From a virus, in IMG/VR virus record IMGVR_UViG_3300032241_002336, positions 17,656 through 81,655 of that record: a stretch of 64,000 nucleotides of DNA. One strand, given 5' to 3'. The position numbers were made by a program, and so were the translations under genes. Below the pieces are notes generated by a model that saw only the letters and a program-made list of their open reading frames with translations, had not been told where the DNA came from and did no database searches. The first letter of the stretch is position 1; each line of letters starts with the position of its first letter. Of this stretch, positions 24,604 through 51,692 are shown one piece after another.

Positions 24604-24620
24604 TTTATTATTTTAGTTTT

Positions 24621-24630
24621 TTATAAATAG
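24621..24630 (-). promoter_or_regulatory. Putative late-type promoter motif (CTATTTATAA)
   Basis: On the minus strand, one base different from ATATTTATAA, 17 bases before the ATG of the giant adhesin gene and within the 40-base gap after the preceding stop. Confidence 0.4.
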
Positions 24631-24643
24631 CGAATATTACACT

Positions 24644-33752: not shown

Positions 33753-36700
33753 TTATAATTGAGCTGTTGCAGTACAAGCAACACTATCTGTTACTGTTGC
33801 TGTTATTAGATCACTACTTGGTGCTGTATAGGTATTAGTGCTATTAGTATCAACTGGTGAATAAATATATGGTGGTTGACCACCAGTTGCTGTATATGTT
33901 ATTACATTATTACTATCTCTAACACCACTTAATGTTAATGTAGCTGGTTGAGATACAACCACGGTTGCCGTAGTTTTCTGTCCATTGCTATCTGTAGCTG
34001 TCAATGTATATGTATCAGAACATAAATCATTAAATTGCATATTATTATATGAATATGTTTGATTATAACCCATAGTACCAACTAAATTAACATTATATGG
34101 CGGATAACCACCAGATATAATAGGATTAATACTTGTAGAACAATCAGTTGTTGAACAGGGAGCGTATTTTGGTAATATTGGCTGTGTTATTAATATTGGT
34201 GCTACTGTAGTTACATTCAATGTCGTAATACATTTATTTACTGGATTGCTACTGTCTGATGCTGTAATTACATATGTACCAACTCCAATATTGTTTATTG
34301 GTGAGTCGCTTAAAGAAGCATTAGTCAAATTAATATTTGTATTTGGACCACTTATATTTATACTATATGGATGGATACCTCCTAATAAATATTGTATGTT
34401 TATACTACCATTATTAGAAGTTGTTGTAGTTGGTGGATTTAATATTGAAAATGAGCATGTAAATGGCTGAGGACCAAATAAACTAACTTCTCTAATCATT
34501 ACAGTATTCAAAGCATCTGTAGCAGTAATTATATAGGGCTGTGTACTCGCTGGTAATCCAGTTATAGATCCAGAAGTATTTGTTGTTAATAAGCCACTAT
34601 TATAATTTATATTTGTTATAGTATATCTATATGGTGGTGTTCCACCCAAAAATGTAAATGATATACTACCATCCGTTGATGTCGTAGTAGTAGCATTTGT
34701 AACAGACACGATAATGTCAAATTCGTCTTTTACTTGATTAATACATGTAGTAAAGAAATTTTTTCTAAATAAATCTAATGCTGTATTATTTGGTACTATA
34801 CCAAAATAAAAATAATATGAATTACCTTTAGCTTGGGATGAAAAATCTAAACCAATATTACTATTATTTGAAAAATTTCTATAGAGTTTATAAGCATTTC
34901 CATCATTAAAATCTGGCGTTCCAACGTAATCTTGACCAGTTATACCAAATGACGTTCCATTTGCTATTGAATTTAATTGGGTTAAATTATTTGATGGATA
35001 TGTCTCTTGTGAGCCATTTATATTCAATAAATATAATGAATCTCTTAAATACTTATTTATACTAGTCTGTGTATCTATAGTATTAGTCTGTTCATAAATT
35101 TGATTTATTGAAACGGCATATGGTGGTGTGCTAGTACCTGTAGCTGAAGGTAAATCAACACCTATTTCTGAGAGTCTTCTTATATTTAAACATTTTTGTT
35201 CATTGGCACCTATACCAGCACAATCTATTGTGAAAAATAAACCAGTATATTGTCCTGATATATCAAAAATTCCAGTAACCGTTTCACCAATTGGTATTCC
35301 ATTAGACATATCCACTGGTTCTTGGATTAGTGGTGGCATTTTAAAAGATGAATTAGTTAAATATTGTATAATTTGTGGATATCCCTGCCAATCACAACTT
35401 AATATAGAACCTAAGTTAACTATATCTGTCGCAAATAGTTTATTATTATTATTATTTAATGTTAATGGTGGGTAGTATAAAATTTTATTATATTGAACTA
35501 ATAATCCATTTAACATGCTATCATAAAAAGAATCTGAAGTACTAGTATTACTTACATTTGAATTAGTACTATCATGTAATTGTATTGTATGACATTCGTT
35601 ATATGATGTTCCAGATATTCCATCTAATGGGCTAATTTCTTTACAATATGTTTCACAAAATCTTTCACTGCCACTAGCTTTTTTCTTATATTTTAATAGA
35701 TAATAATATAATGATCCATTAACCCAATCATTATAAAAATCAAATTGAAATATATCTAAATCTTGTGCTAAAATAGTTGCAATGCATGTATCAAAGTTTT
35801 TAGCCGTTTGTCCACAACCAGGCGTATAATCTTGTCCATTACAATTTAATTTAATCGGATTTATCCATCCAAATGGATGAACACCCAGAATAGATACGCA
35901 TACAATAGAATTTATAACACTAACAATAGCGGATATTATAGTTATTATTAAACATATTACCGTAAATAATATATTTTTTTGTGAATAAAATCTATTATAA
36001 GGAAAAGGATTTTTATTACCGACACATCCATCAACATCTTTTATACCTGTAAAATTGGTATTTGTTTGTCCAACACCACCTGAGGCTATTAATTCAGCTT
36101 TATTTATTATATTACCGACATTTGTTTCGGTTCTAGGAATAAAATTTTTAATTGTATATATTTTATTCCAATATAAATCAGTAAAACTATTATCATTTGT
36201 GGTTGAATCAAAATTGAAATCAATATCAGATATGGTATTTGGATTATGAGGCACTAAATATTTTCCATGTGTTCTTATTCTGCCTATATCAGATTCTTCA
36301 TCCATACTTATCCTAAATCTAACTCTAGACCTTGTTGGTATGCCTTTAGTTGTGTCTTTTGATGGTATTAATTCACCAGTCTCACTCGTTACTACATAAT
36401 CGAGATTCATTGGTATTTGATAAGCCCAATTTCCATTATCATCAATAACTCTACCGCCATTTACATTAAAACTTTCTATTTGATTGTTTAATGTTTTTCT
36501 AATCATTTCAATTGTTCCTTGTCCAGTTTCTTGTTCACAGAGTACGCCTAATTTTTTTCTCGGTATACAATTTTTATTTACGCTATTTTTTTTGCTATCG
36601 CCAAAAAGACTTCCAATGAATATTGCAGAAGGGGTTAAACTATAATTTAAATTTATTTCAACTCTATTTATTCCTATTTGGCAATTATCAGTATCTCCCC

Positions 36701-37376
36701 AGAATGGTAATACATTTACAGATACATTTGCTGATTTAATTTGAACTAAAGAATCTAAATTTGTCCCACCTTTAAACTTTGTTGAACTATAGAAAAATTC
36801 TTTTGGTGTACCTTGGCTTATTAAATCATATGGTTTCTGAGACGCAATACCAATATCTGATATATCCGCATCTACATGCAGTGTATATGTACCAAGTGGT
36901 ATCCCAAAAAGCATAAAATCACCAGCATAATTTGTTGTTGTAGTAAATTTATAATACTTACAGTATACATAAAGCATTTCATCATTATCCAATACCTCTC
37001 TTTTACTTGGAAATGTTCCGACTGGGGTATAACAGGGATTTTGATTATCTGGCTCAGATTTTAATAGGTTATATCTTATGCCATTACTATTTGTATCTGT
37101 TACAGTCTCAAATGGATAAAGACCGTATATTTGTGGGTTGGCTTTATCAACGTCATCAACTGGTATAAAAACGCTTACTTTAGCATTTGGTATACCAAAC
37201 CCATTATTAACTAATACACGACCAACAACAACACCATAATCAGAACAAAAATTTCGATAAGCATTTTCCTGACTTATATTTAAAGATAAAATTTTAATAA
37301 AATCAAAATCCTGTTCAATTTTAAAATTAATATACTGTGTTCCTTGATTTGCTGGTATTCTTATACTATCTGACAT
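33753..37376 (-). CDS. Large baseplate/tail protein with CarboxypepD_reg-like N-terminus, hydrophobic core segment and SprB-type repeats
   Basis: The 1207 residues comprise four recognisable parts. Near residues 48-75 is an Ig-like element, VVVGRVLVNNGFGIPNAKVS, like CarboxypepD_reg domains ('G.V.d..g.pi.gA.V'), and a related element, GDFMLFGIPLGTYTLHVDAD, follows at about 148-168. At about 475-510 is an unusually hydrophobic segment (ILFTVICLIITIISAIVSVI and on), long enough for one or two membrane helices, followed by a Cys-containing region. At the C-terminus are about four SprB-type repeats (GGTPPYRYTI, GGIHPYSINI, GGYPPYNVNL, GGQPPYIYSP). It overlaps the next upstream small membrane-protein gene by one base. 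Probably a baseplate protein that reaches the cell surface; the hydrophobic part may touch the membrane. Confidence 0.82.
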   Translation of the reverse strand: MSDSIRIPANQGTQYINFKIEQDFDFIKILSLNISQENAYRNFCSDYGVVVGRVLVNNGFGIPNAKVSVFIPVDDVDKANPQIYGLYPFETVTDTNSNGIRYNLLKSEPDNQNPCYTPVGTFPSKREVLDNDEMLYVYCKYYKFTTTTNYAGDFMLFGIPLGTYTLHVDADISDIGIASQKPYDLISQGTPKEFFYSSTKFKGGTNLDSLVQIKSANVSVNVLPFWGDTDNCQIGINRVEINLNYSLTPSAIFIGSLFGDSKKNSVNKNCIPRKKLGVLCEQETGQGTIEMIRKTLNNQIESFNVNGGRVIDDNGNWAYQIPMNLDYVVTSETGELIPSKDTTKGIPTRSRVRFRISMDEESDIGRIRTHGKYLVPHNPNTISDIDFNFDSTTNDNSFTDLYWNKIYTIKNFIPRTETNVGNIINKAELIASGGVGQTNTNFTGIKDVDGCVGNKNPFPYNRFYSQKNILFTVICLIITIISAIVSVINSIVCVSILGVHPFGWINPIKLNCNGQDYTPGCGQTAKNFDTCIATILAQDLDIFQFDFYNDWVNGSLYYYLLKYKKKASGSERFCETYCKEISPLDGISGTSYNECHTIQLHDSTNSNVSNTSTSDSFYDSMLNGLLVQYNKILYYPPLTLNNNNNKLFATDIVNLGSILSCDWQGYPQIIQYLTNSSFKMPPLIQEPVDMSNGIPIGETVTGIFDISGQYTGLFFTIDCAGIGANEQKCLNIRRLSEIGVDLPSATGTSTPPYAVSINQIYEQTNTIDTQTSINKYLRDSLYLLNINGSQETYPSNNLTQLNSIANGTSFGITGQDYVGTPDFNDGNAYKLYRNFSNNSNIGLDFSSQAKGNSYYFYFGIVPNNTALDLFRKNFFTTCINQVKDEFDIIVSVTNATTTTSTDGSISFTFLGGTPPYRYTITNINYNSGLLTTNTSGSITGLPASTQPYIITATDALNTVMIREVSLFGPQPFTCSFSILNPPTTTTSNNGSINIQYLLGGIHPYSINISGPNTNINLTNASLSDSPINNIGVGTYVITASDSSNPVNKCITTLNVTTVAPILITQPILPKYAPCSTTDCSTSINPIISGGYPPYNVNLVGTMGYNQTYSYNNMQFNDLCSDTYTLTATDSNGQKTTATVVVSQPATLTLSGVRDSNNVITYTATGGQPPYIYSPVDTNSTNTYTAPSSDLITATVTDSVACTATAQL

Positions 37377-37760: not shown

Positions 37761-39581
37761 TTATGCGGTTTTGGTACGAACTATTATGTCTGTATTTGGA
37801 AATTTTACCTCATACATGGTTTCAGGCTCTCCATATAATGTATATGCATCAGAAATATCAATTTGCATTGTTGATGCATCAATATATGGCTGTGTTATTT
37901 GATTTATTGAATAAACACCACCAACCATATTATATACTCTTATTTCAATTGTATTTAAAACACCATTAACACTATTAATTGTTTGATATAAACCGCCTAA
38001 ATAAATATTTTCACCCATATCAAAATTATTCACACTCATATGGCTAGTTATATCATTGACTACTTGGCTTATAATTTGTGATTGAGAATAATTATGATCT
38101 ACAAGTAAATCAACTTGAAATGATATATTAACTATTCTAGCATCTAATACTTCTATATAATCATTCATCATTCTATAATTAGACAAGTAAGTCGCTATAT
38201 TCTGTTGAAGTGTCGTATTTGAAGTATTATTTAATGTTCCGTCAGCATTAAGTCCTAATATATATACTTGAATTTTATTCTGATTTTCCTGAACACCGAC
38301 TCTAAATGGTATGCCATATTGACCTGGCATGTTGTTAATAATTGTCTGATAATCTTTAATTGTAACAGCTCTATTCTGAGCAGAAAAATTATATCTAATA
38401 TAATTTCTTATTTCTTCAATCGAAGGCGCATTTTTACCGCCTAAAGCAGGAATTGGATTATTAACAGTTAAGGAAGACTTGACGGAATTATTTGTAGCTG
38501 TATTACCACCATTAACAAGAATATTTGCTAAACCAACGCTATTTATGACTCCTTGTCCTATATTTGAAGATATACCACCACCTACTCTATATTTAACAAA
38601 TAATGTATTATTTGGTGATAATGTATAACCTAATGATAAATTATTTATAAAATCACCGATTTGATTAATTAAATTAGGATTAATTCCATAATTTGTTAAT
38701 GAACTAATATCCTGTGTACCACCGCCAAATATTAATTTTAAAAATCCTTTATCCGTATATTCTGTTATAAATTTATTGTTAACCGTAATGTACTTACCTG
38801 CTACAATACTAGGATTACTTGAAAATGAGTTATAATCAGGTACAAATACTAAATTTTCTGCTAATGCATCTACTCGATACCATTGATATGTTTCATCTAA
38901 AAATTGAGCATAAGTTGGATCTGCATTGTAATTTGTTCCTGGCAACAGTATAACGGATTCTATTGATAAAACGTTATTATCTGGTAAAACAACTTCTAAA
39001 AATGGAACTATATCAGCAGTAGTAATAACTCTACTATATGTTTTACTATATCCATTTGTTACAATTTCCCTCTTTGTAAGTGTATAATTAATTAGATTAC
39101 CATTGCTATCAAAATTTGGAATAATGAGCCTATTTGGTATACCACCAGCGCTAAATGGCTGGGAAAAATCAATATCATCTGTAGTCTCAAATACTTGACC
39201 ACTGCCATTTACTTGAGCACCAGCTTGAATAATTGGCGCATAAGAAATATCAAAACTACTTCCATAAACTGGTACTGTTACTGAAAAATCAACAATTGTG
39301 GCTGAAGCTCTATTACCAGCTACATTTAAGCCAAAAGTCCTTGCTAACGCCATTAATGAACTTCTTTGTTGAGCATAATCAATCTGAGTCTCTTGGAACA
39401 TCCTGTCAGTATTGAAAGAAATCATATCACCTACAGCCGCATTTAATTCTAGCAACATCATACCAACAGAGGAATCATTAAAATCGTTGAATATTGAAGG
39501 ATAGTATTGTTTTACATAATTTATTAGATCGGTTCTAATGTCGGAAAAATTTCTTGAAGTATAGTTTACATATTGTGCCAT
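37761..39581 (-). CDS. gp6: Baseplate wedge protein gp6-like (baseplate J family)
   Basis: Forms the inner baseplate ring that triggers sheath contraction. The 606 residues begin MAQYVNYTSRNFSDIRTDLI. The next stretch, FNDFNDSSVGMMLLELNAAV then GDMISFNTDRMFQETQIDYA, is the signature opening of T4 gp6 and baseplate J proteins. The C-terminal half contains RNYIRYNFSAQNRAVTIKDY and ARIVNISFQVDLLVDHNYSQ, matching the C-terminal dimerisation domain of gp6-like proteins. The length is close to T4 gp6 (660). It lies downstream of gp25, separated by the second plus-strand endonuclease. A late-type motif lies 10 bases before its ATG. Confidence 0.92.
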   Translation of the reverse strand: MAQYVNYTSRNFSDIRTDLINYVKQYYPSIFNDFNDSSVGMMLLELNAAVGDMISFNTDRMFQETQIDYAQQRSSLMALARTFGLNVAGNRASATIVDFSVTVPVYGSSFDISYAPIIQAGAQVNGSGQVFETTDDIDFSQPFSAGGIPNRLIIPNFDSNGNLINYTLTKREIVTNGYSKTYSRVITTADIVPFLEVVLPDNNVLSIESVILLPGTNYNADPTYAQFLDETYQWYRVDALAENLVFVPDYNSFSSNPSIVAGKYITVNNKFITEYTDKGFLKLIFGGGTQDISSLTNYGINPNLINQIGDFINNLSLGYTLSPNNTLFVKYRVGGGISSNIGQGVINSVGLANILVNGGNTATNNSVKSSLTVNNPIPALGGKNAPSIEEIRNYIRYNFSAQNRAVTIKDYQTIINNMPGQYGIPFRVGVQENQNKIQVYILGLNADGTLNNTSNTTLQQNIATYLSNYRMMNDYIEVLDARIVNISFQVDLLVDHNYSQSQIISQVVNDITSHMSVNNFDMGENIYLGGLYQTINSVNGVLNTIEIRVYNMVGGVYSINQITQPYIDASTMQIDISDAYTLYGEPETMYEVKFPNTDIIVRTKTA

Positions 39582-39695: not shown

Positions 39696-41336
39696 ATGAT
39701 AAAAAAAAATACAAATGAATTTATTAAAGAGGCCAAAAAAGTACATGGCGATAAATATGACTATTCATTAGTTGAATATAAAAAAAATAATCTTAAAGTA
39801 AAAATAATATGTCCTATACATGGTGAATTTGAACAGTCTCCGTCTAAACATATAAATGCTAAACAAAATTGTCCTAACTGTAGTAATGAAAAAATACATA
39901 ATAAACAAAGAAAAAATATAAATGATTTTATTAAAGAAGCTAAAAAAATTCATGGAGATAAATATGACTATTTTTTATCAAAATATGTTAGTTATAACAA
40001 AAAGATAAATATTATTTGTCCAATACATGGTGAGTTTAATCAAACACCAAATAATCATTTAAATGGTAAAGGATGTAAATATTGTGGCGGTACTTCAAAA
40101 TTAGATACCAAATTATTTATTATTAACGCTAAAAAAATACATGGGAATAAATATGACTATTCTAAAGTAAATTATATAGACGCAAGAACAAATATAAAAA
40201 TTATATGCCCAAAGCATGGAGAATTTGAGCAATCTCCAAATAATCATATTTCAAAAAAACAAGGTTGTTATGATTGTTTGGGTAAAATCTATGATACTGA
40301 TAGTTTTATTAAAATTTGTTCTTTAATACATAATAATAAATATAATTATTCTTTAGTTGATTATGTAAATTCAAGTACAAAGGTTAAAATTATATGTTCA
40401 GAACACGGTGAATTTGAGCAAAGGTGTGATACCCATAGAAACGGAGCTGAATGCCCTAAATGTTTAGATATTGGACAATCAAAAAACGAAATAAATTTAT
40501 ACCAATATCTAATATCCATATATAAAAACGAAATTATACAAAAAGATAGAAGTATTTTAAGTAAACAAGAATTAGATATCTATATTCCAAATAATAATAT
40601 TGCCATTGAATATAATGGATTATACTGGCATAACGAATTAAATAAACCATCAAACTATCATCTTAATAAAACAAAATTATGTGAAGATAAAGGAATCAAA
40701 CTTATTCACATATTTGAAGATGAATGGATACATAAAAAAGATATCGTAAAAAGTAGATTAAAAAATATACTAGGATTAACATCTAATAAAATATATGCAA
40801 GAAAATGCATTATTAAAAATATTGATACTAAATTATCAAAAGAATTCTTAAATACAAATCATATACAAGGACATGTTAATTCAAGTATAAAATTAGGATT
40901 ATATTATAATGATGAATTGGTTAGTATTATGACATTTGGCTCTCTAAGAAAAACAATGGGCAAAAATAAAATAGACGGTTCGTATGAATTATTAAGATTC
41001 TGTAATAAATTAGATACTACAGTAATCGGAGGTGCTAATAAACTACTTAGTCATTTTATTAAAAATTATAATCCAAATGAAATAATAAGTTACGCTGATA
41101 GAAGATGGTCCAATGGTAATTTATATGAAAAATTAGGCTTTGAATTTAGTCATAATAGCAAACCAAATTATTGGTATGTTAAACAACTTAAAAGAGAATA
41201 TAGATTTAAATATAGAAAAAATATTTTAGTTAAAGAAGGTTATGATCCTACTAAAAGTGAGCATGAAATAATGCTTGAGCGTGAAATATATAGAATATAT
41301 GACTGTGGAAATAAATGTTATAAATTAACCATTTAA
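39696..41336 (+). CDS. Free-standing homing endonuclease (Hef-like) with four zinc-finger-type repeats
   Basis: The 546-residue protein lies on the plus strand between gp25 and gp6, both on the minus strand. It has four ~60-residue repeats (FIKEAKKIHGDKYDYS, IICPIHGEFEQ, H...GC..C) covering about residues 7-265, the same type as in the endonuclease at 29485. A Vsr/PD-(D/E)XK-like nuclease core follows at about 290-380 (LDIYIPNNNIAIEYNGLYWH, then FEDEWIHKKDIVKSRL). A C-terminal region (TNHIQGHVNSSIKLGL, VSIMTFGSLR, YADRRWSNGNLYEKLGF) matches my recollection of Hef-like phage homing endonucleases. Its stop codon shares TTAA with the stop of the convergent gp25 gene. Confidence 0.88.
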   Translation: MIKKNTNEFIKEAKKVHGDKYDYSLVEYKKNNLKVKIICPIHGEFEQSPSKHINAKQNCPNCSNEKIHNKQRKNINDFIKEAKKIHGDKYDYFLSKYVSYNKKINIICPIHGEFNQTPNNHLNGKGCKYCGGTSKLDTKLFIINAKKIHGNKYDYSKVNYIDARTNIKIICPKHGEFEQSPNNHISKKQGCYDCLGKIYDTDSFIKICSLIHNNKYNYSLVDYVNSSTKVKIICSEHGEFEQRCDTHRNGAECPKCLDIGQSKNEINLYQYLISIYKNEIIQKDRSILSKQELDIYIPNNNIAIEYNGLYWHNELNKPSNYHLNKTKLCEDKGIKLIHIFEDEWIHKKDIVKSRLKNILGLTSNKIYARKCIIKNIDTKLSKEFLNTNHIQGHVNSSIKLGLYYNDELVSIMTFGSLRKTMGKNKIDGSYELLRFCNKLDTTVIGGANKLLSHFIKNYNPNEIISYADRRWSNGNLYEKLGFEFSHNSKPNYWYVKQLKREYRFKYRKNILVKEGYDPTKSEHEIMLEREIYRIYDCGNKCYKLTI

Positions 41337-41719
41337 ACATTAATTATGACAAAATCATCAATATCAAATACATTATCAGATATTGTATATTTTAAAGTAA
41401 TTACAGCGGCATAATCGCTATTTGTGGCTGGTGTAACTGTTAAACTTGTAATTATTAGATTTGGTAGATACTTTTTAACTGAAGTTTTAACAGCATCTGT
41501 TATATCTGATAATGTTTTTGAATCATTTGGTTCAAATATAAATTTTAATAAATCTGTTCCAAAATCTGGATTATATAGTCTCTGGCCTTTTCTTGTTAAT
41601 AATAGATGCATGAGATCGGCTTTGATAGCTTTTTGGTTATCAGCATTTAGATTTAAAAAAAACCCCTGTGGACTATTTTTAAACGGATAATCAATATTTA
41701 TATATCTAGTATTTGACAT
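41333..41719 (-). CDS. gp25: Baseplate wedge protein gp25-like
   Basis: The 128-residue product belongs to the GPW/gp25 family, a lysozyme-shaped baseplate wedge component that with gp6 and gp53 starts sheath assembly. It shows DYPFKNSPQGFFLNLN at the start, the characteristic LLLTRKGQRLYNPDFGTDLL (the 'l.t..Ger....fG..l' signature), then FEPNDSKTLSDITDAVKTSV and the final strand pair. Full length. The gp6-like gene follows in the same direction after the plus-strand endonuclease. A late-type motif lies 13 bases before the ATG, and the terminator of the nrdJ unit lies just upstream. Confidence 0.94.
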   Translation of the reverse strand: MSNTRYINIDYPFKNSPQGFFLNLNADNQKAIKADLMHLLLTRKGQRLYNPDFGTDLLKFIFEPNDSKTLSDITDAVKTSVKKYLPNLIITSLTVTPATNSDYAAVITLKYTISDNVFDIDDFVIINV

Positions 41720-41821: not shown

Positions 41822-42622
41822 CTAGACTATTAAAACTTCACAACCACCACTTCCACAAGCTATTTCTCCGCTTAGATTTGTGGAATCAGTTACTTCAATA
41901 ACTTTAGTTAAATCAATATCTGATATATGTTCTATCATTTCTTCATACGTTTTTTTGGTACAATCAGTAAATGGAGCTTGGATATATGTTCCACCATCAT
42001 ATGGTAATACGGATATACCATTAAATGAGTTTCTATTATCCCACATCCATTTACCTACATTTGGCCATTCATTTATTTTAAAAATAATATTTTCCTTTTC
42101 ATCTTTTCTATCCTCCAAAATTGGAAATCCGTTAGAATCTATTATTGGTAATCCATCATCATTTAGTTTAGTTACCTTTTCTGATTCTTTTTTAATACTA
42201 ACTGTTACGCTGACATTATGTGTATTTTCACCATCCCTATGTCCGCCTCTAACCCATTCAATATTAAATCTTTTAACTCTCTCTAATAAATTCATTGGAG
42301 ATTCAAATCTTAAAATAGAACCTTCTGGTGCTTTAACTGGTAATGAAATAACGGCTTGGTCCTTTGGCTTAAAATATTCATCTTCAACTAATTCTGGATG
42401 ATAAATTGATAAATATGTATAAATTGCTTCATTCTTACCTACACGTATCCTTCTAATATAATAATCATTATGCCAAGCATGAATTCCTGATGCCGTACCT
42501 AGAACGAGAGAACTTGTATTATGTACTACAGCTTTATTTTCTAATTGATAAGAGTGTGTTTCGTTAACCTCAATATCTACAGTAAACTTAGCTTCTCCCT
42601 TTTTAATTGATTTAATTTTCAT
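41822..42622 (-). CDS. nrdJ: C-terminal half of class II ribonucleotide reductase, preceded by the C-part of a split intein
   Basis: A 266-residue gene. Residues 1-35 are a C-terminal intein fragment (MKIKSIKKGEAKFTVDIEVN, then ETHSYQLENKAVVHN). Residues 36-266 are the reductase C-terminus, opening TSSLVLGTASGIHAWHND, then YYIRRIRVGKNEAIY, and ending with the redox pair CGSGGC (Cys256 and Cys261, five apart, as in the class II enzyme of Lactobacillus). After protein trans-splicing with the product of 43833..47501, the Thr at +1 joins the Gly of TVKPSG to rebuild the conserved KPSGT loop. Its ATG overlaps the stop of the endonuclease gene upstream (ATGA). It ends before the terminator at 41776..41797. 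Confidence 0.93.
   Translation of the reverse strand: MKIKSIKKGEAKFTVDIEVNETHSYQLENKAVVHNTSSLVLGTASGIHAWHNDYYIRRIRVGKNEAIYTYLSIYHPELVEDEYFKPKDQAVISLPVKAPEGSILRFESPMNLLERVKRFNIEWVRGGHRDGENTHNVSVTVSIKKESEKVTKLNDDGLPIIDSNGFPILEDRKDEKENIIFKINEWPNVGKWMWDNRNSFNGISVLPYDGGTYIQAPFTDCTKKTYEEMIEHISDIDLTKVIEVTDSTNLSGEIACGSGGCEVLIV
42518..42622 (-). mobile_element. Split intein, C-terminal fragment (35 residues)
   Basis: It contains intein block F (VDIEVNETHSYQL) and block G (AVVHN) with the penultimate His and terminal Asn needed for cleavage, directly followed by Thr as the C-extein nucleophile. It starts with its own ATG. Its length is typical of natural C-inteins. The partner is at 43836..44168. Confidence 0.93.
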
Positions 42623-43767
42623 TTTTTTAAATTTTTATTTATAAATACTATTATGTTTTCTAAAACATTATTTTTATTTGAAATATATTCTGCCTCTTTA
42701 ACTCTTTTAACTATTAGATTATTATCATTATATATTTTATTTTTTAATTCATCACGTATAATTGTATTCGGTAAAGAGTGCCAATAATCACCATCAAATT
42801 CTATTATTATATTACATATTTTTATATCTGGAACAACACAATATGTTCCATATTTATCATAATCAACATTAATATAAAATGGTTTAGTTATTGGCGAACC
42901 GTGAAATTTTTCCTTAATATCATCAGAAATTAAATTATAAATACTCTGATTAAATTCAAGTTCAATATTTGAAGAAAAATCGGGAAAATTTGAAAGTTTG
43001 GATTTTAATATTTCTTGATATTTTATTTTACCTTCCGCTTCACCATATTTTTCTATAAAATAATCTAATCGCCCACCATTACCTTTTTTATAACAAACAT
43101 CTTTATATTTTTCCAACCCCAAAATTTGACCATACTTTTCAATATAATATTGTTTAGTGTTTTTAAAAGCACGAGTTAAATTAATATTATTAAATTTTTC
43201 TCTTCCGTCTTTTTCACCATATTTTTTAATAAAAAAATTTAAATCTCTAATTTGTCTTTTACTAACAATATTTTTAGCTTCTTCCTCAGAAATATTATGA
43301 TGTTTCATCACTGACTCATATTTAAATGGATTATAATGTTTTTCCATCTTATTTTTATGTTTTTTAACACCATTATCAAAACCATATTTATGAATCATAC
43401 TATTTAAATCTGTTTTTGAGTTATCTCTATGTTTTGTGCGTATTTTAATGATTTCATCATCTGAATATCCATTAGATTTAAGACTATTAACACTTACAGA
43501 TAACCTACTATTTTTATCATAATAACGCTTAGTTCCTTCTTCCTGACCGTATCTTTTAATAAATCCATCTAATGTATTTTTAACTTTATCAATTTCTCTA
43601 AGTTCATTATATCGTTTAACACCATTTTCATAGCCAAATTTAAATATTAGTACTTTTAATGATGATCCTCTCATAAGATTCCCACATCTCTTTTTACCTT
43701 TTTGTTCACCGTACAAATGAATTAAAAATCTTCTTAATCTATTAATTTTTTCCATGTTTTTTTTCAT
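42619..43767 (-). CDS. Free-standing Vsr/EDxHD-like homing endonuclease between the split-intein halves
   Basis: The 382-residue protein carries at least seven short repeats over residues ~15-255 of the form F(I/Y)xKYGxExGxxKY: LIFKFGYENGVKRYNE, FIKRYGQEEGTKRYYD, MIHKYGFDNGVKKHKN, FIKKYGEKDGREKFNN, YIEKYGQILGLEKYKD and FIEKYGEAEGKIKYQE, plus one at the start. They are probably modular DNA-contact units. A Vsr-like nuclease follows (YCVVPDIKICNIIIEFDGDY then WHS, and RDELKNKIYNDNNLIVKRVK). The Asp of VPDIK and the E-x-D-G-D-x-x-H string are the likely catalytic residues, like the EDxHD family typified by I-Bth0305I. Its stop overlaps the start of the nrdJ C-terminal gene (ATGA). A GGAGG ribosome-binding site 7 bases before the ATG is buried in a hairpin (43770..43823). 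Confidence 0.9.
   Translation of the reverse strand: MKKNMEKINRLRRFLIHLYGEQKGKKRCGNLMRGSSLKVLIFKFGYENGVKRYNELREIDKVKNTLDGFIKRYGQEEGTKRYYDKNSRLSVSVNSLKSNGYSDDEIIKIRTKHRDNSKTDLNSMIHKYGFDNGVKKHKNKMEKHYNPFKYESVMKHHNISEEEAKNIVSKRQIRDLNFFIKKYGEKDGREKFNNINLTRAFKNTKQYYIEKYGQILGLEKYKDVCYKKGNGGRLDYFIEKYGEAEGKIKYQEILKSKLSNFPDFSSNIELEFNQSIYNLISDDIKEKFHGSPITKPFYINVDYDKYGTYCVVPDIKICNIIIEFDGDYWHSLPNTIIRDELKNKIYNDNNLIVKRVKEAEYISNKNNVLENIIVFINKNLKK
42639..42648 (-). promoter_or_regulatory. Putative late-type promoter motif (GTATTTATAA) before the nrdJ C-terminal gene
   Basis: On the minus strand, inside the 3' end of the endonuclease gene and 16 bases before the ATG at 42622. It would allow the C-terminal half of the reductase to be expressed without the upstream genes. 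One base differs from ATATTTATAA, and the location in coding DNA weakens it. Confidence 0.35.
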
Positions 43768-43769
43768 AA

Positions 43770-43823
43770 TTAAACCTCCGTTTATATTATAAATATAAAG
43801 TATTTATATAAACGGAGGTTTAA
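43770..43823 (-). promoter_or_regulatory. 18-bp inverted repeat sequestering the endonuclease ribosome-binding site
   Basis: Arms 43770..43787 and 43806..43823 are perfect 18-base inverted repeats (TTAAACCTCCGTTTATAT and its complement) with an 18-base loop. In the leftward mRNA the 3' arm contains GGAGG, 7 bases before the endonuclease ATG, and the 5' arm contains the pairing CCUCC. The hairpin begins 9 bases after the stop codon of nrdJ-N. There is no T-run, so it is not a terminator. A late-type promoter motif (43787..43796) sits in the loop. Confidence 0.9.
43787..43796 (-). promoter_or_regulatory. Late-type promoter motif (ATATTTATAA) in the hairpin loop
   Basis: Exact ATATTTATAA on the minus strand in the loop of the hairpin at 43770..43823, 19 bases before the endonuclease ATG and 7 bases before GGAGG. 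A transcript starting just downstream would contain the ribosome-binding site but not the arm that blocks it. Confidence 0.5.
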
Positions 43824-43832
43824 TGGTAAAAT

Positions 43833-46800
43833 TTATAAGTTATAGTCAATAATATCATCATCAATTGTTAGTTCATCGGCTCTAACCCAATCTCTATTTT
43901 TTGTTAAAAATTTATGATTACCAGTTACAGATACAACTAAACCATCTTCAAATTCTATATCATAAGTTTCTTCAACTCCATTAATGAATAATTTATCAAT
44001 TTGTTGCCATTTATTATCCTTATCTTTAACTTTAATATCATCATTAACACCTAAAAATATTTTATTCTTATCTTTAAATTCATTTAAATTATAACCATTA
44101 ATTTTAAAAATTTCCTCTAAAGATAAAATACCTTTATTAGTAATAATTTTAGTCTCTGGTACGACACAACCGCTTGGTTTAACTGTTGTAGCTCTAGCCG
44201 CTTTATTAACACCAATTAATTTAGCTACTCTAGCGTTTTCTTTAAGAACAACTTTAGACGCTGATTCTAAATCATATTTTAATATCTCACCACTACCAAT
44301 ACCAGTCATACCGACACCAATTAATGCTTCTTTTTCTGTTGTTCTTCTCCAAATATCTCTTAGGTAATGAAAATTAGTATAACTAGCTTGTAGAGTACCA
44401 ATAAATGATGCGGCTTTTACTCTTTCTTCTAAATCTTCTTGTGAAATAATATCTGAAACATTTACCTCACATAAATTACAGAATTGAAATGGTCTTAAAC
44501 CAATTTCGCAGCATGGATTAGTGCCATAATCTTTATCATTACTGAAATAAACGCCTGGTTCACCACTACCGCTATCTTCAATTTTTTTCCATAATTGTAA
44601 AAATTTATCTTCAGTAATTTTATGCCTAAGAATAACGGCTGAATTATTTGCTCTTCCTCTTTGTGGATTTAATTCCCACCAAGCACCAGATTTACATGAT
44701 AACATTTCTTCATCATCCATTGAAAATAATGAAATCAATGCTGCTCTACGAATACCACCAGTTAATACAGCATCAGCTATAAAACAATTATGGGCTATAC
44801 CAGACATTGTTTTAAAATTATGATTGTCCTCTACATCAATACAGTACGATGTTTTATATTTTCTAGCGTTTGATTCATCCATTGATTCTATCATTAATAC
44901 TCTAAGGTATAAAGGTATCTTTTCATAGTTTAAAATATCCAACTCAAAATCACTAATATTAGTATCGATTTTATCATTAGAAATCTTATATCGCATACAT
45001 TTTGGTATGTATTTACTAATTAAAGATATAAATTTTTTTGTGTTTTCAACATTTAATCTTAGCCTGTAATGTATCGTTGAATATTGCTCATATTCAATTT
45101 TATCAATAACAGAAGAAATATTAAATTTGTTTAACAACATATTAGAAATTTTTTCAACATCACTATAGGATAAATTATATGTTGAGAATGTAATATAGGG
45201 ATGTCTATTGCCTGTTGCAGAATGTAAAGAACCGTCATCCATATACCAAAAAGCCAGTCCAATTGGATTAAGTCTTTTTAGCCACTCTTCTGTGATTGAT
45301 TTAACGCCATCCACATAACAATAATTATATAGTTCAGAAATAGCATACGTTGATTTACTTCTTACCGTATTTAGATTAGTATTATACTTCCTTTCAGATA
45401 TAACAGTATTTCTTTCATAGGAAAACTTATTTCCCAATAAATCTCGATTACTTAATATTTCAGCTATATAATCAACATATTCTTTTTGCTTATCTGTATG
45501 TGATGTTACAAAATATGCTGTTCCCTGTTTAATTATCGACCCATCACCCAATGTCGATCCCAAAATCATTTGTTCTAATAATGTATCATTTCCATATTCA
45601 CCAATGTTGATATAGTCATTATTTGTTAGATCTTGAATCTCTTTATATCCCTCTTTGGTTAACATTTTATGATTATGAGTAAACCATCCACCTAAAACAC
45701 CATGTTTTCCATTTCGTTGATGTTCGAAGTGAATTTTTTTCCAATCTCCTTCTTCATATTTATTTTTATACCATCCAGTGATTTTTTTAGGTTCAAAACT
45801 ATTAGTATCCTCATTAAATGACATAACCTCACAATCCAATTTATTTTTTACAACGTTTCCAATCTTTTCCCAACTTCCATCTGCTAACAAAATTAAATTA
45901 TCGTGATGTAGACAAACAATATCATGAGCTTCTATTGGCTGTAATTTAGAACCATCTTCTTTTGTATCCAATATTTTTTTAATATTATGAATACAGTCTT
46001 TTAGTGGCTGCGGACCTGGTGCTCTACCACCGCTAGTTACCAATAATGCACCTTTTTGTCTAATGTCTGAATAATCAAATTCTGGAGTCGATAAGCCTTC
46101 AAAATACGCTCTCATTAGTATTTTGATAGCATCAGCCCATCCTTCAATACTATCGCCAACAAGAAACCTTCTTGTACGTAATGGATTTGGTTTTCTTATT
46201 TCAGGTAATTGTTCGACATGATGTTTCTGTACTGAAAATCCAACACCAGTACCTCCCAATAATAAGAACATAGTCTCACTGAATGCTCTATAATCATCAA
46301 CTGGTAAATATGCGCAATTCCCAGTCACAATACCTCCACCCAAAACAAAACTTTTATCATCTTCAACCTCAAGACACCAAACTGGTTCCATATGATGCGT
46401 TTCTTTTATTTCAGATGCAGACCATGATGTGTTTGGTCTGCTTCCTATATTATTGGTTATACTATATTTATATGTTTCTGGCCTTTCCCCATAATTAGTT
46501 ATTTGACCAGTTAAATCTTCTTTATTTGTTATATAATAACCACAAACGTCTAAATGATCTTCTAAAAATTTTTGATGAATTAAATCAGAAGATTGGATTT
46601 GTTTATATTTAGATAAGGTATTATTTTCATACCAATCAGGATTTTTATATGCATCTGCACATAGATATCCATCCATAAATGCTTTAACCATTTCCAAACC
46701 ATCTTCTTTAATTGATGGGGCAGTTTTTAAATATTTACCAGTATATACCATAATATCTCCCTGAATACTATTGGGTTCTGATGACTCAAAACCCATTTCT

Positions 46801-47501
46801 TTAAATCTATAAAGATATTTCATTGCTTCATCACCGCATAGCCTAACCATTGAATATTTCGGTTCCCCGTCTTTTCTTAATATTGAGCCGTCTCCAAACA
46901 CATAACCATAGCACCAATATAATCTTTCCATCGGACTTGCGGAATTATAATCAAAATTTTGATTTCTTTTTGTTGGATATAATGGTTGATTAATTTGCAA
47001 ATCCAACGTTTCCGTACCATCAAATAATATCCACCTATGATTCGCAGTTGCCCTTATTTTTTTTATGCTTTTTCCTCTTTTAAATGTGATTATATTTAGT
47101 TGCTGATTACCATAATTTCTAACCACGGCTTTTTTAAATAAACCCTTATGTGTTAAAACGGTTACTTCATCACCATCTTTAAAATCATTAAATGATTTTA
47201 AACCCTCACTTGTTATAAATTCAGTTTCTACACCGAAACAATTGAAAATTCTATTTGGGCTAATTTCAATTGGTTTTCCTCCGAATTGGAGTGATCTCAT
47301 TGATGGTAATACTTTTTTTTCGTAAACTAATTCATAAGCTTTTTCAATTTCATCAATTAAATTTGGAAATTTTTTAATGTGCATTTCCTTGTTTCTCGTT
47401 ACTAATTCTTCCCATGTTTCTCTTCTTTGCAATTCGGGGATATACTTGGCGTATTTCATATACACGGTAATATCCGACAAAATCTTTGTTGATAAATCCA
47501 T
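43833..47501 (-). CDS. nrdJ: N-terminal part of class II (B12-dependent) ribonucleotide reductase with two full inteins and an N-intein
   Basis: The enzyme reduces ribonucleotides to deoxyribonucleotides for phage DNA synthesis with adenosylcobalamin. Of 1222 encoded residues, only 427 are reductase: 1-87, 396-529 and 906-1111. The remainder is intein 1 (88-395), intein 2 (530-905) and the N-part of a split intein (1112-1222). Catalytic cysteines fit the monomeric Lactobacillus-type enzyme: Cys396 (FN|CAYLP), the thiyl-radical Cys997 in GTNPCCEIGL and Cys1008 in FQFCNL, 11 apart as in Cys408/Cys419. The other redox pair is in 41822..42622. Spliced exteins total 658 residues, a little shorter than the Lactobacillus enzyme (739). 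It follows the helicase gene by 12 bases in the same unit. Confidence 0.95.
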   Translation of the reverse strand: MDLSTKILSDITVYMKYAKYIPELQRRETWEELVTRNKEMHIKKFPNLIDEIEKAYELVYEKKVLPSMRSLQFGGKPIEISPNRIFNCFGVETEFITSEGLKSFNDFKDGDEVTVLTHKGLFKKAVVRNYGNQQLNIITFKRGKSIKKIRATANHRWILFDGTETLDLQINQPLYPTKRNQNFDYNSASPMERLYWCYGYVFGDGSILRKDGEPKYSMVRLCGDEAMKYLYRFKEMGFESSEPNSIQGDIMVYTGKYLKTAPSIKEDGLEMVKAFMDGYLCADAYKNPDWYENNTLSKYKQIQSSDLIHQKFLEDHLDVCGYYITNKEDLTGQITNYGERPETYKYSITNNIGSRPNTSWSASEIKETHHMEPVWCLEVEDDKSFVLGGGIVTGNCAYLPVDDYRAFSETMFLLLGGTGVGFSVQKHHVEQLPEIRKPNPLRTRRFLVGDSIEGWADAIKILMRAYFEGLSTPEFDYSDIRQKGALLVTSGGRAPGPQPLKDCIHNIKKILDTKEDGSKLQPIEAHDIVCLHHDNLILLADGSWEKIGNVVKNKLDCEVMSFNEDTNSFEPKKITGWYKNKYEEGDWKKIHFEHQRNGKHGVLGGWFTHNHKMLTKEGYKEIQDLTNNDYINIGEYGNDTLLEQMILGSTLGDGSIIKQGTAYFVTSHTDKQKEYVDYIAEILSNRDLLGNKFSYERNTVISERKYNTNLNTVRSKSTYAISELYNYCYVDGVKSITEEWLKRLNPIGLAFWYMDDGSLHSATGNRHPYITFSTYNLSYSDVEKISNMLLNKFNISSVIDKIEYEQYSTIHYRLRLNVENTKKFISLISKYIPKCMRYKISNDKIDTNISDFELDILNYEKIPLYLRVLMIESMDESNARKYKTSYCIDVEDNHNFKTMSGIAHNCFIADAVLTGGIRRAALISLFSMDDEEMLSCKSGAWWELNPQRGRANNSAVILRHKITEDKFLQLWKKIEDSGSGEPGVYFSNDKDYGTNPCCEIGLRPFQFCNLCEVNVSDIISQEDLEERVKAASFIGTLQASYTNFHYLRDIWRRTTEKEALIGVGMTGIGSGEILKYDLESASKVVLKENARVAKLIGVNKAARATTVKPSGCVVPETKIITNKGILSLEEIFKINGYNLNEFKDKNKIFLGVNDDIKVKDKDNKWQQIDKLFINGVEETYDIEFEDGLVVSVTGNHKFLTKNRDWVRADELTIDDDIIDYNL
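43836..44168 (-). mobile_element. Split intein, N-terminal fragment (111 residues)
   Basis: It begins with Cys after TVKPSG (block A, CVVPETKIITNKGILSLEEI), has block B (VSVTGNHKFLTKNRDWVRAD with the Thr-x2-His motif) and ends after DDDIIDYNL at a stop codon. It contains no endonuclease domain. With the 35-residue C-part at 42518..42622 it makes a complete ~146-residue minimal intein. Confidence 0.93.
44787..45914 (-). mobile_element. Intein 2 in nrdJ (376 residues, LAGLIDADG)
   Basis: Residues 530-905 of the nrdJ-N product. It starts CLHHDNLILLADGSWEKIGN and ends SGIAHN before Cys (FIADAVLTGGIRR), with block B GGWFTHNHKMLTKEGY. Two LAGLIDADG-type helices are visible, MILGSTLGDGS and LAFWYMDDGS, with the metal-binding Asp retained in both, so the endonuclease may be active. 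It is inserted between HDIV and CFIADAVLTGG of the reductase. Confidence 0.93.
46317..47240 (-). mobile_element. Intein 1 in nrdJ (308 residues, LAGLIDADG)
   Basis: Residues 88-395 of the nrdJ-N product. It starts CFGVETEFITSEGLKSFNDF, has block B IRATANHRWILFDG and ends FVLGGGIVTGN before Cys396. The penultimate residue is Gly instead of the usual His, a variant known in some active inteins. LAGLIDADG-type helices are CYGYVFGDGS and VKAFMDGYLCAD. The +1 residue is the conserved redox cysteine of the reductase (N|CAYLPVDD). Confidence 0.92.
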
Positions 47502-47513
47502 TTTTTTTATTTT

Positions 47514-48947
47514 TTATAAATTATTATTATTTCCTGAAACATTATTTAATTGTTCTAAAACATTTCTTCTTTTATTTTTTTCATTTAAATGTCTGGCGAT
47601 AATATTTTTACTCTCAGCACTAATCGCATCATTATGTTCCGTTCTTGTCCTAATATTGCTATGAGGATTCATTTCTATTTGTATTTTACTATTATCAAAT
47701 ATTATATTCTCAAACATAACACCGCTTTTACCAAATCTAGATTTTATTATAGCCATATTAGCTGTATTATTATCTTTCTGCTCAAGACCCTTAGCTATAG
47801 AGACTATAAAGTGCCCAATTTGGGCTTTTTTAATTGACCCACCCATTTGGTCACCTTCAACAATTTCAGCCCTAATACTGCTGCGATTACCTTGTACAGC
47901 TGTCCAACCAACCATATCATATTCAGATAGCATTGACTCAAATTCCCTCATTACTTTACCCTCACCTACATTAGGATCATCTACCTTTTTGGAGGGTTCA
48001 ACACAATCAATATAATCCAATAATATTATATCTGGTTTAAAACCCTGTGCTATTTGTTTTCTAATGTATTTTTTAATTGTTGACATTGTTGTACCATCAC
48101 TAGGAAATCTTTTTAGTTTTAGTAACCCACTTTCTTTACTCTTTTCTTCAACAATTTTTTTAATTAAATCTTTATGATATGATAATTCATTTAGTTCAAT
48201 TCCAGACCAACAGGAAAAATGTTTTCTTTGTATTATTTTTTTATCATCTTCAAAAAATATTTGAAGAACATTTTTACCCATATTTTTAGCTGTATTGGCT
48301 ATTTTGGTAATCATTGTGGTTTTTCCAACCCCTGTTGCGGCAAGTATAATCCCCAATTCACCCTTAGACAAGCCACCATCCATTATTTCATCTAATCCTT
48401 TAATACCCGTTGGTATTGGATCTCTATAATCATCACACAATACAGAATCTAAATTTTCAAAAACATTTATACTATCATCTTTGTTAGTACCATGATCTAA
48501 CGCTTTTCTGAGAATTTGTTCACACTCATCATATTTAGTAATATCATTTTTTTCTATGATAGTATGAATTTCTCTGACAGCTTTTTTTAATTCTTGGGTC
48601 TGACAAAATTTCATACCCATTTTTTGAACTTCTAAACAATCATTAAGTTCAGCATTCTTAATTTTTTCAACAAATTCTATATTGAATTTATTTTTTAATT
48701 CAGTTAAACCATTATTTTTTATTCTAAACTCAAGACTTCCAATATCTGGAATTATATTATCTTCTTGATACGCTTCTTTAATCGTAGCTAAAATTAACTT
48801 AAAAGCATTTTCGCCAAAATAATCTGGTTTTATAATATCAATAATTGATTCGCCAAATTTTTTATCCAATAAAATTTGTGCTATCAATCTTAATTTAAAA
48901 TTTTCCCCCAAATAATCTAAACTAGCCTTTTTCGAATCATTTGACAT
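47514..48947 (-). CDS. gp41: Replicative DNA helicase (gp41/DnaB-like)
   Basis: Hexameric 5'-3' helicase that unwinds DNA at the fork and works with the primase (11871..12818). The 477 residues have a DnaB-type N-terminal helical domain (residues 1-150) and a RecA-like motor: GLSKGELGIILAATGVGKTT with the P-loop at about 204-211, the Glu after strand 2 (QIFFEDDK), Walker B DIILLDYID, and the Gln/Arg region WTAVQGNRS, then AKGLEQ and SRFGKSG. No intein is present here, although gp41-type helicases are known intein hosts. It is followed 12 bases later by nrdJ. A late-type motif lies 30 bases before its ATG. Confidence 0.94.
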   Translation of the reverse strand: MSNDSKKASLDYLGENFKLRLIAQILLDKKFGESIIDIIKPDYFGENAFKLILATIKEAYQEDNIIPDIGSLEFRIKNNGLTELKNKFNIEFVEKIKNAELNDCLEVQKMGMKFCQTQELKKAVREIHTIIEKNDITKYDECEQILRKALDHGTNKDDSINVFENLDSVLCDDYRDPIPTGIKGLDEIMDGGLSKGELGIILAATGVGKTTMITKIANTAKNMGKNVLQIFFEDDKKIIQRKHFSCWSGIELNELSYHKDLIKKIVEEKSKESGLLKLKRFPSDGTTMSTIKKYIRKQIAQGFKPDIILLDYIDCVEPSKKVDDPNVGEGKVMREFESMLSEYDMVGWTAVQGNRSSIRAEIVEGDQMGGSIKKAQIGHFIVSIAKGLEQKDNNTANMAIIKSRFGKSGVMFENIIFDNSKIQIEMNPHSNIRTRTEHNDAISAESKNIIARHLNEKNKRRNVLEQLNNVSGNNNNL

Positions 48948-50558: not shown

Positions 50559-51692
50559 TTAAATTGAAATATCGTTAGGGGTTAGTTTTTCAACTACTTC
50601 AGTTGTGACATTAATATCATCATCCATGCTAATATTAGCATCGTCATAAGTTGCTGTCAACTGTTCTATAATAAATTTTTTGTGTGTTTTTTTATACTCA
50701 TCAATTTTATCAGGATTCCAATAACCATGTGAAGTAGATAATATTTTACCCATTTGTTCGATGCCAGTTACTTGGTTCTTTTCACATTTAACATCGGCCT
50801 CGACACCAAATTGATATTTATATTTAATTCCTTGATGAGTAATCTCAGCATTCTTTTTCTTTGTTCCATGTGTAAGTATGCCACCAAAGTGTATAATGAG
50901 CCTAGCCCCAAAGAAAAACGCCTCACCGCCTTTATGCTTAACAACAAAATTCATATTATCGAACCAAATTTTTTGTACAGCAAAGAATGTATTTGTATAT
51001 GGACAGTCCTCTCTCTGTGTATCTGGTATTCTAAAATTAAGAATAGATTTAAAAGATCTCTCCAATGCACCAGCATTCCATTGTGCGTTCTTACTTTTAG
51101 ATACAACTGACTTAAAACAGTCCAATGAACCAATAGAATCCCAGAAAAAAGCAACACTTCTGGGTAATTTACCAGATTCTTGGTCATCCATAATTTCATC
51201 CATAAAACGAGCAATATCTTCAATTACTGGTTGATTTCTGACAGGTTCGGCTTTTTCTTGAGCATCATCATAATGCCAATTACTATATAAATCAACAAGC
51301 ATTCTATTGCTTACGAATATAAAATCACCATCATAACTAATTTCACCCGTTTCTTTATCAACAACTTCATTAAATTGTACACCAACATTTCTTGCGTGAT
51401 CCCATTGAAAATTATTTTCTGTATCAAATATTATAGGAAAATCACCAATTTTTTGTGCGCCAGCAATTGCTTCATAAATACCAGTAGATTTACCAGTATT
51501 TGAATATCCTCTAGCTAGACTTGTAAATCCACGTGGAATGCCAGGTATCCTAAGCGCATCTTGAAATGCTTCAGACAATGGAATCCAACTTAATTCTTTA
51601 TTTTTTATTTTTCTTGTTAATCCTTTTGATTCTTTATATGATTGTGCATCAAATGATTTCTTTTCTATATTTTTTGCAGGTTTTTTAGCCAT
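50559..51692 (-). CDS. uvsX: UvsX/RecA-like recombinase
   Basis: Forms filaments on ssDNA and drives strand exchange in recombination-dependent replication. The 377 residues contain Walker A RGYSNTGKST (61-70), a strand ending IIFDTENNFQWD (the catalytic Glu at the RecA position), Walker B SVAFFWDSIGSL (Asp185) and the C-terminal core KGGEAFFFGARLIIHFGG then IKYKYQFGVEADVKCEKN. It ends in an acidic tail (DDANISMDDDINVTTE). The length is close to T4 UvsX (391). It is separated from SSB by a terminator hairpin, which may tune its level relative to SSB. Confidence 0.94.
   Translation of the reverse strand: MAKKPAKNIEKKSFDAQSYKESKGLTRKIKNKELSWIPLSEAFQDALRIPGIPRGFTSLARGYSNTGKSTGIYEAIAGAQKIGDFPIIFDTENNFQWDHARNVGVQFNEVVDKETGEISYDGDFIFVSNRMLVDLYSNWHYDDAQEKAEPVRNQPVIEDIARFMDEIMDDQESGKLPRSVAFFWDSIGSLDCFKSVVSKSKNAQWNAGALERSFKSILNFRIPDTQREDCPYTNTFFAVQKIWFDNMNFVVKHKGGEAFFFGARLIIHFGGILTHGTKKKNAEITHQGIKYKYQFGVEADVKCEKNQVTGIEQMGKILSTSHGYWNPDKIDEYKKTHKKFIIEQLTATYDDANISMDDDINVTTEVVEKLTPNDISI

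What the first reader, a model, noticed from the sequence alone, without database searches (positions are those of the whole stretch)
41822..47501. Fractured nrdJ: a split intein divides the reductase into two genes with an endonuclease gene in between
Seen in sequence: the gene 43833..47501 ends in a 111-residue N-intein starting at Cys after TVKPSG. The gene 41822..42622 starts with a 35-residue C-intein ending VVHN and followed by TSS. A Vsr/EDxHD-like endonuclease gene lies exactly between them. Established: this arrangement is the 'fractured gene' type known from metagenomic phage data for nrdJ, gp41 and IMPDH genes. The insertion site here is the KPSG|T loop. As I recall, the described NrdJ-1 split intein sits at the NPC motif, which is uninterrupted here (NPCCEI). 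So this may be a separate, natural trans-splicing split intein at a new site in nrdJ.
Basis: partly seen in the sequence, partly recalled or inferred. Interest (0 to 1): 0.9.

Follow-up and report, generated by a model that had tools for sequence, protein, structure and literature searches.

The report
Split-intein cassette breaking phage nrdJ
In this Bacteroidota-type phage the ribonucleotide reductase gene is broken into two genes whose proteins should glue themselves together through a split intein; a DNA-cutting homing enzyme gene sits in the break, and relatives show that the whole unit jumps between phages and carries its own translation switch.

Summary
The N-half gene (43833-47501, -) ends in a 111-aa N-intein after VKPSG. 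The C-half gene (41822-42622, -) starts with a 35-aa C-intein ending HN|T. An EDxHD/Vsr-like endonuclease gene (42619-43767, -) lies between. Both refutation routes fail: three relatives encode an intein-free, gapless NrdJ, 81-85% identical, and the same break recurs in about 30 phage contigs, so it is not an assembly error.

New here: (1) the KP[SAE]G|T site carries an intein in 38 distinct phage N-halves (a few contiguous, some split without a gene between, most split around an endonuclease gene); the homologous APTG loop of class I NrdA is used too. (2) In one phage pair the exteins are saturated at synonymous sites while N-intein, endonuclease and C-intein are close: the cassette moved as a unit. 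(3) A covarying hairpin hides the endonuclease's Shine-Dalgarno, as for T4 I-TevI. (4) The endonuclease stop overlaps the C-half start. (5) Some relatives have nrdJ broken twice.

The window nrdJ also holds two contiguous inteins. The kind ('fractured gene') has been known since 2009; novelty of the site could not be checked because that paper is not held. Trans-splicing and cleavage are inferred.

The parts
43833..47501 (-). nrdJ N-half gene (1222 aa): N-extein in three pieces, two contiguous inteins, terminal N-intein
   Evidence: phrog_367 ribonucleotide reductase E 3e-76; TIGR02505 RTPR
46317..47240 (-). contiguous intein 1 (308 aa) at RIFN|CAYLP
   Evidence: 83% identical intein in L207, 73% in L194-L198
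44787..45914 (-). contiguous intein 2 (376 aa) with LAGLIDADG domain at HDIV|CFIAD
   Evidence: PF03161 LAGLIDADG_2 E 3e-27 and PF14890 intein splicing domain
43836..44168 (-). N-intein (111 aa), Cys1, block B TGNH, after VKPSG
   Evidence: TIGR01445 match 1112-1200; Cys1, Thr82, His85 invariant in 8 sequences
43762..43831 (-). RNA hairpin (arms 43762-43787 / 43806-43831) sequestering the SD of the endonuclease gene and reaching its start codon
   Evidence: strongest inverted repeat of the window; z -5.0; covariation in 6 sequences
43775..43779 (-). Shine-Dalgarno GGAGG of the endonuclease gene; the only one of 44 window genes with GGAGG upstream
43786..43795 (-). TATTTATAAT promoter-like motif in the loop/right arm of the hairpin
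   Evidence: TATTTAT in 34 of 75 upstream regions of endonuclease relatives vs 3.5 expected, 1 of 71 at C-half starts
43801..43808 (-). TATAAATA (T4-late-promoter-like) in the loop
   Evidence: not conserved in the closest relatives
42619..43767 (-). free-standing EDxHD/Vsr-like homing endonuclease gene (382 aa): helical YG..G..[KR]Y repeats plus C-terminal nuclease domain
   Evidence: dN/dS about 0.17 in relatives L087/L088
42619..42622 (-). ATGA overlap of endonuclease stop and C-half start
   Evidence: overlap conserved in most split relatives with an intervening gene
41822..42622 (-). nrdJ C-half gene (266 aa)
42518..42622 (-). C-intein (35 aa), ends VVHN
   Evidence: Met1, His34, Asn35 and Thr+1 invariant in 9 sequences
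41825..42517 (-). C-extein (231 aa) TSSLVLG...CGSGGCEVLIV
   Evidence: matches NrdJ of phages from its first residue on

Best explanation
The element is a mobile split-intein cassette inserted at the KPSG|T loop of a phage class II (NrdJ) ribonucleotide reductase. It consists of an N-intein coding part, a leader with a hairpin switch, an EDxHD/Vsr-type homing endonuclease gene and a C-intein coding part. The two nrdJ genes are translated apart, the 111-aa and 35-aa intein halves fold together, and class 1 trans-splicing (Cys1, TxxH, penultimate His, Asn, Thr+1) joins the exteins into an intact reductase; the two contiguous inteins splice out in cis. The endonuclease cuts empty nrdJ alleles near KPSG|T, and repair copies the whole cassette in. 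In transcripts read through from nrdJ-N the hairpin hides the endonuclease's Shine-Dalgarno, so little enzyme is made; transcripts starting inside the hairpin loop lack the left arm and free it, which delays endonuclease synthesis. Shown from sequence: anatomy, splice residues, empty alleles, unit transfer, hairpin covariation, purifying selection. Inferred: trans-splicing, cleavage, promoter activity and timing.
For: Anatomy. Intein halves: TIGR01445 over exactly the N-half tail; the joined halves match solved inteins including NrdJ-1 8ubs, E 7e-5. Splice residues invariant in relatives. Empty alleles with gapless 81-85% identical NrdJ. About 30 other split loci at the same residue plus contiguous versions. 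Transfer as a unit: L131/L087 vs L088 third-position identity 0.26-0.52 in exteins but 0.77-0.88 in the windows holding the N-intein, 0.78-0.95 in the endonuclease, 0.94 in the C-intein. On the C-extein tree the window nests with intein-free L006-L008 (99*), and the state changes at least 10 times. Endonuclease under purifying selection. Hairpin: z -5.0, 95% paired with 13 double changes, 0 of 500 shuffles; SD unpaired 0.00 in read-through RNA vs 0.67-0.80 in RNA starting in the loop; same logic documented for T4 I-TevI and Aeh1 mobE (PMC2988022).
Against: No splicing or cleavage data. The EDxHD assignment rests on a weak sequence match (E 0.004) and a fold match with prob 0.96 but E 0.58, from a model of pTM 0.44; no Pfam or NCBIfam family is hit. 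The homing site is unknown. Covariation rests on six sequences with arms placed by hand. The promoter motif is AT-rich and unmapped, and in the folded short RNAs the start codon itself stays mostly paired.
Confidence: 0.87

Rival explanations
1. Gene in pieces without splicing: the two NrdJ halves work as a non-covalent complex and the intein halves are relics, as in Aeh1 nrdA split by mobE without an intein.
For: Precedent of a functional split reductase (PMC3653736). Split states without an endonuclease gene exist (L131, L203, L222).
Against: All splice residues are invariant across 8-9 divergent sequences; dN/dS in the N-intein is about 0.13 between L087 and L088; contiguous versions at the same site exist and must splice (L190, L208, L219).
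Confidence: 0.06
2. Dead locus: nrdJ is a decaying pseudogene interrupted by selfish elements.
For: Four invading elements in one gene (three inteins and one free-standing endonuclease gene).
Against: All frames open; extein 85% identical to intact relatives without gaps; catalytic NPC and C-terminal CGSGGC motifs intact; low dN/dS of intein and endonuclease in relatives.
Confidence: 0.04
3. The hairpin is a transcription terminator of the N-half gene or an endonuclease-binding operator, not a translation switch.
For: Stable stem just after the N-half stop. T4 I-TevI also binds an operator overlapping its promoter (PMC2988022).
Against: No T-run follows the stem; the right arm contains the SD and runs to the start codon in the closest relatives; the C-half lies downstream on the same strand and its start lacks the promoter-like motif in relatives.
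Confidence: 0.25
4. Assembly or chimera artefact.
For: Metagenome-derived contig.
Against: Same arrangement at the same residue in about 30 other contigs, and at the homologous loop of class I NrdA in record LR756500.
Confidence: 0.01

Closest known systems
Fractured genes with split inteins (Dassa et al. 2009, cited in PMC3653736 and PMC12350094)
   Same: Conserved phage enzyme gene broken in two by a split intein with a free-standing, often Vsr-related endonuclease gene between; nrdJ among the targets.
   Different: Insertion at KPSG|T; two further contiguous inteins in the same gene; could not be compared with the paper's own list because it is not held.
NrdJ-1 split intein (PDB 8ubs; insertion at the NPC motif, own knowledge)
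   Same: Split class 1 intein in a phage NrdJ, split at the usual place between blocks B and F.
   Different: Different site and low similarity (E 7e-5, best stretch 59 residues). An intein of this type at NPC co-occurs with the KPSG one in L087 and L092.
I-Bth0305I (EDxHD homing endonuclease, PDB 3r3p)
   Same: C-terminal catalytic domain by profile and fold.
   Different: Different N-terminal helical-repeat region; lies between split-intein halves instead of in a group I intron.
T4 I-TevI / Aeh1 mobE translational switch (PMC2988022)
   Same: Hairpin hides the RBS in upstream transcripts; promoter-like motif inside the hairpin.
   Different: Between split-intein halves; the motif conserved here is TATTTATA, not the T4 late TATAAATA, and the phage carries a full RpoD-like sigma gene.
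Salmonella phage S16 uvsW (HQ331142)
   Same: Split intein plus endonuclease gene breaking a phage gene (DE|C ... HN|CH).
   Different: Helicase target and another endonuclease type; but cultured, so usable as a test bed.

Membership tests
Fractured-gene arrangement | Conserved enzyme gene split into two ORFs that align as one intein-free protein | tested here: met
   gapless 85% identity to L007 over 656 aa
Fractured-gene arrangement | N-intein at the 3' end of gene 1 and C-intein at the 5' start of gene 2 | tested here: met
Fractured-gene arrangement | Free-standing endonuclease gene between the halves | tested here: met
Fractured-gene arrangement | Protein trans-splicing | not testable with these tools
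   needs expression and mass spectrometry
Class 1 intein | Cys/Ser1, block B TxxH, penultimate His, C-terminal Asn, Cys/Ser/Thr+1 | tested here: met
   C1, T82 and H85, H34, N35, T36 invariant
NrdJ-1 intein allele | Insertion at the NPC motif | tested here: not met
   NPCCEI uninterrupted; insertion at KPSG|T
EDxHD/Vsr homing endonuclease | Catalytic domain of the 3r3p type | tested here: met
   hmmsearch E 0.004; Foldseek prob 0.96, TM 0.61 of target, E 0.58; P313, D314, E323, H330, D339 invariant. Modest strength
EDxHD/Vsr homing endonuclease | Site-specific cleavage of the empty allele | not testable with these tools
   indirect only: unit transfer signature
I-TevI-type hairpin switch | RBS sequestered by RNA structure in read-through RNA | tested here: met
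   by prediction and covariation
I-TevI-type hairpin switch | Promoter inside the hairpin giving shorter late transcripts | tested here: inconclusive
   motif enriched 34/75 vs 3.5; no transcript data
Monomeric class II reductase (RTPR) | Similarity to the L. leichmannii enzyme and NPC/C-terminal Cys motifs | tested here: met
   1l1l E 6.5e-35 over the spliced extein; TIGR02505 is below its whole-protein cut-off on the separate halves

The most novel reading that the evidence does not exclude
The cassette has become a control device of the phage reductase. Because the endonuclease stop overlaps the C-half start (ATGA) and the endonuclease start is locked by the hairpin, synthesis of the C-half, and so of active NrdJ, may depend by translational coupling on the same switch. 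In doubly fractured relatives (L087, L092) one reductase would then be built from three separately controlled polypeptides by two orthogonal split inteins.
Probability: 0.12. Interest if true: 0.8.

Novelty: new member of a known kind. Interest (0 to 1): 0.55.

Why it matters
It points to a widespread intein family (38 distinct N-halves at KP[SAE]G, more at the homologous APTG loop of class I reductases) from which protein-ligation tools could be drawn. The set holds contiguous, split-empty and split-with-endonuclease states at one site, plus a near-identical phage pair that differs by cassette parts, so the open question of how split inteins arise and move becomes directly testable. The synonymous-site data support movement of an intein encoded in two genes plus its endonuclease as one unit.

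Tried and rejected
Dassa 2009 and Carvajal-Vallejos 2012 are not held, so novelty of the site stays open; a text search for KPSG plus intein gave nothing. The idea that TATAAATA is a general late promoter here was not supported (4 of 44 genes, shuffled mean 2.0); TATTTATA did better (8 of 44, mean 1.5, max 6 in 300 shuffles). The other two endonuclease genes (29485, 39696) were checked for the same hairpin: no comparable perfect stem. A predicted structure of the joined intein was not attempted because joined sequences are not accepted by that tool. In L131 no ATG, GTG or TTG opens the endonuclease remnant ahead of its nuclease part, so strict coupling of the C-half to it is unlikely there. 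L092 was left out of the covariation count because its loop misaligned.

Full report
Observation. The window is part of an 81,655-base virus record. Its proteins fit a myovirus of Bacteroidota: gp25 baseplate protein and DnaB-like helicase, and a recombinase (50559-51692) whose only matches among cultured-phage records are the Flavobacterium immuto phages (35%). On the minus strand nrdJ is encoded as two genes with an ORF between. The first ends in a 111-aa N-intein right after TVKPSG, and TIGR01445 matches residues 1112-1200. The second starts with a 35-aa C-intein ending VVHN, followed by TSS. Two further contiguous inteins (308 and 376 aa) lie inside the first gene. With all three removed the protein is 658 aa.

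Intein-free relatives L007, L008 and L006 encode NrdJ as one frame, 85.2, 85.3 and 81.2% identical to the 658-aa extein, in one ungapped alignment through all three intein sites. Their sequence reads VKPSG|TSSLVLGTASG. The adjacency claim therefore holds. An assembly error is excluded by recurrence (next paragraph).

A family at this site. Searches with the C-half, the endonuclease and the N-intein gave 38 distinct N-inteins that follow KP[SAE]G in phage contigs. Three are contiguous inteins (L190, L208, L219). About nine are split with no gene between; in L203 the two ORFs overlap by 4 nt. In a few the C-half lies beyond the sequence held or was not found. The rest are split around an endonuclease-like ORF, either of the window's type or another of about 170-280 aa. 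The same split occurs in class I NrdA at the homologous APTG|[ST] loop (L125, L254, and record LR756500 with both halves and a relative of the endonuclease). Relatives of the endonuclease also lie between split-intein halves of helicase and other genes (the gene identities were read from motifs, not tested). In L087 and L092 nrdJ is broken a second time, at NPC|CEI, by a split intein at the NrdJ-1 site, so that the reductase is encoded by three genes.

Evidence for mobility. L087 and L131 are 98.6-99% identical over their shared parts except the first 1.4 kb (93%). L087 carries an NPC cassette of about 770 bp that L131 lacks, and L131 has lost most of the endonuclease gene at KPSG while keeping both intein halves; its C-half protein is about 100% identical. 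Comparing these with L088, third codon positions are at 0.26-0.52 identity in the exteins. They are at 0.77-0.88 in the windows holding the N-intein, 0.78-0.95 in the endonuclease and 0.94 in the C-intein, with a drop to 0.52 in the first extein window after the C-intein. This is what transfer of the whole cassette between two diverged nrdJ genes predicts. On the C-extein tree the intein state changes at least 10 times (3 forced by well supported branches), and the window sits among intein-free alleles (quick tree, many weak inner branches). The endonuclease (dN 0.053, dS 0.32) and N-intein (0.051, 0.40) are under purifying selection between L087 and L088.

The endonuclease. No Pfam or NCBIfam hit. 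It has helical YG..G..[KR]Y repeats and a C-terminal domain. A profile of seven relatives matches I-Bth0305I 3r3p at E 0.004 (profile positions 323-376), below three designed helical-repeat proteins that match the repeats. Foldseek finds 3r3p with prob 0.96, TM 0.61 of target, E 0.58 from a model of mean pLDDT 80, pTM 0.44. P313, D314, E323, H330 and D339 are invariant. EDxHD/Vsr-like is thus likely, not certain.

The switch. The strongest inverted repeat of the window spans the leader of the endonuclease gene and pairs its GGAGG, the only GGAGG upstream of 44 genes. Folding z is -5.0. In six sequences the stem keeps 95% of pairs with 13 double changes, above all 500 shuffles and all slid registers; six sequences are few and the arms were placed by hand. 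The SD is unpaired with probability 0.00 in read-through RNA and 0.67-0.80 in RNA starting inside the loop, though the start codon itself stays mostly paired in the model. The loop holds TATTTATA; TATTTAT is found upstream of 34 of 75 relatives' endonuclease genes (3.5 expected) and 1 of 71 C-half starts. In the window TATTTATA precedes 8 of 44 genes, gp25 among them. PMC2988022 describes the same logic for I-TevI, I-TevII, I-TevIII, segB and mobE. Hairpin leaders also precede other endonuclease ORF types at the KPSG site.

Coupling. The intervening ORF's stop overlaps the C-half start, mostly by 4 or 11 nt, in nearly all such loci. Translational coupling is plausible but not shown, and L131 keeps its C-half without an obvious start for the endonuclease remnant upstream.

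Verdict. A real, well supported member of the fractured-gene kind at the KPSG|T loop. My own recollection is that the 2009 abstract also mentions gene-control elements brought in with the endonuclease, so the switch may be known in outline. Novelty of the site is open: one 2013 paper credits the 2009 work with two nrdJ cases, and I could not read it.

Noticed in passing
L087:4552-8819 and L092:4024-8807: nrdJ fractured twice: a split intein at NPC|CEI (the NrdJ-1 site) and the KPSG|T one, so three genes encode one reductase, with ORFs in both gaps.
   Followed up: partly
L087 vs L131: Near-identical phages that differ by a whole NPC cassette and by deletion of most of the KPSG endonuclease gene: a natural plus/minus pair.
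   Followed up: partly
window 39696-41336 and 29485-30387 (+): Two more endonuclease genes with DUF723/DUF4379 (CapR-like) repeats inserted, on the opposite strand, between structural genes; PMC12350094 describes such repeats with EDxHD/Vsr-like nuclease domains.
   Followed up: partly
Salmonella phage S16, HQ331142 104626-107352 (L313): uvsW split by a split intein (DE|C ... HN|CHLATG) with an endonuclease ORF between, in a cultured phage; annotated as separate helicase and hypothetical genes.
   Followed up: partly
window, upstream of 14750-16891, 19861-24603, 37761-39581, 41333-41719, 47514-48947: TATTTATA motif upstream of several genes (within 70 nt of the start); candidate phage promoter element.
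   Followed up: partly
L138-L165 (several): Relatives of the endonuclease follow very short N-halves ending soon after RQSGKC and precede long C-halves, as in atypically split terminase inteins.
   Followed up: no
window 19861-28348, 33753-37376: Large structural proteins with SprB-like GG.PPYTY.W repeats, pointing to a Bacteroidota host.
   Followed up: no
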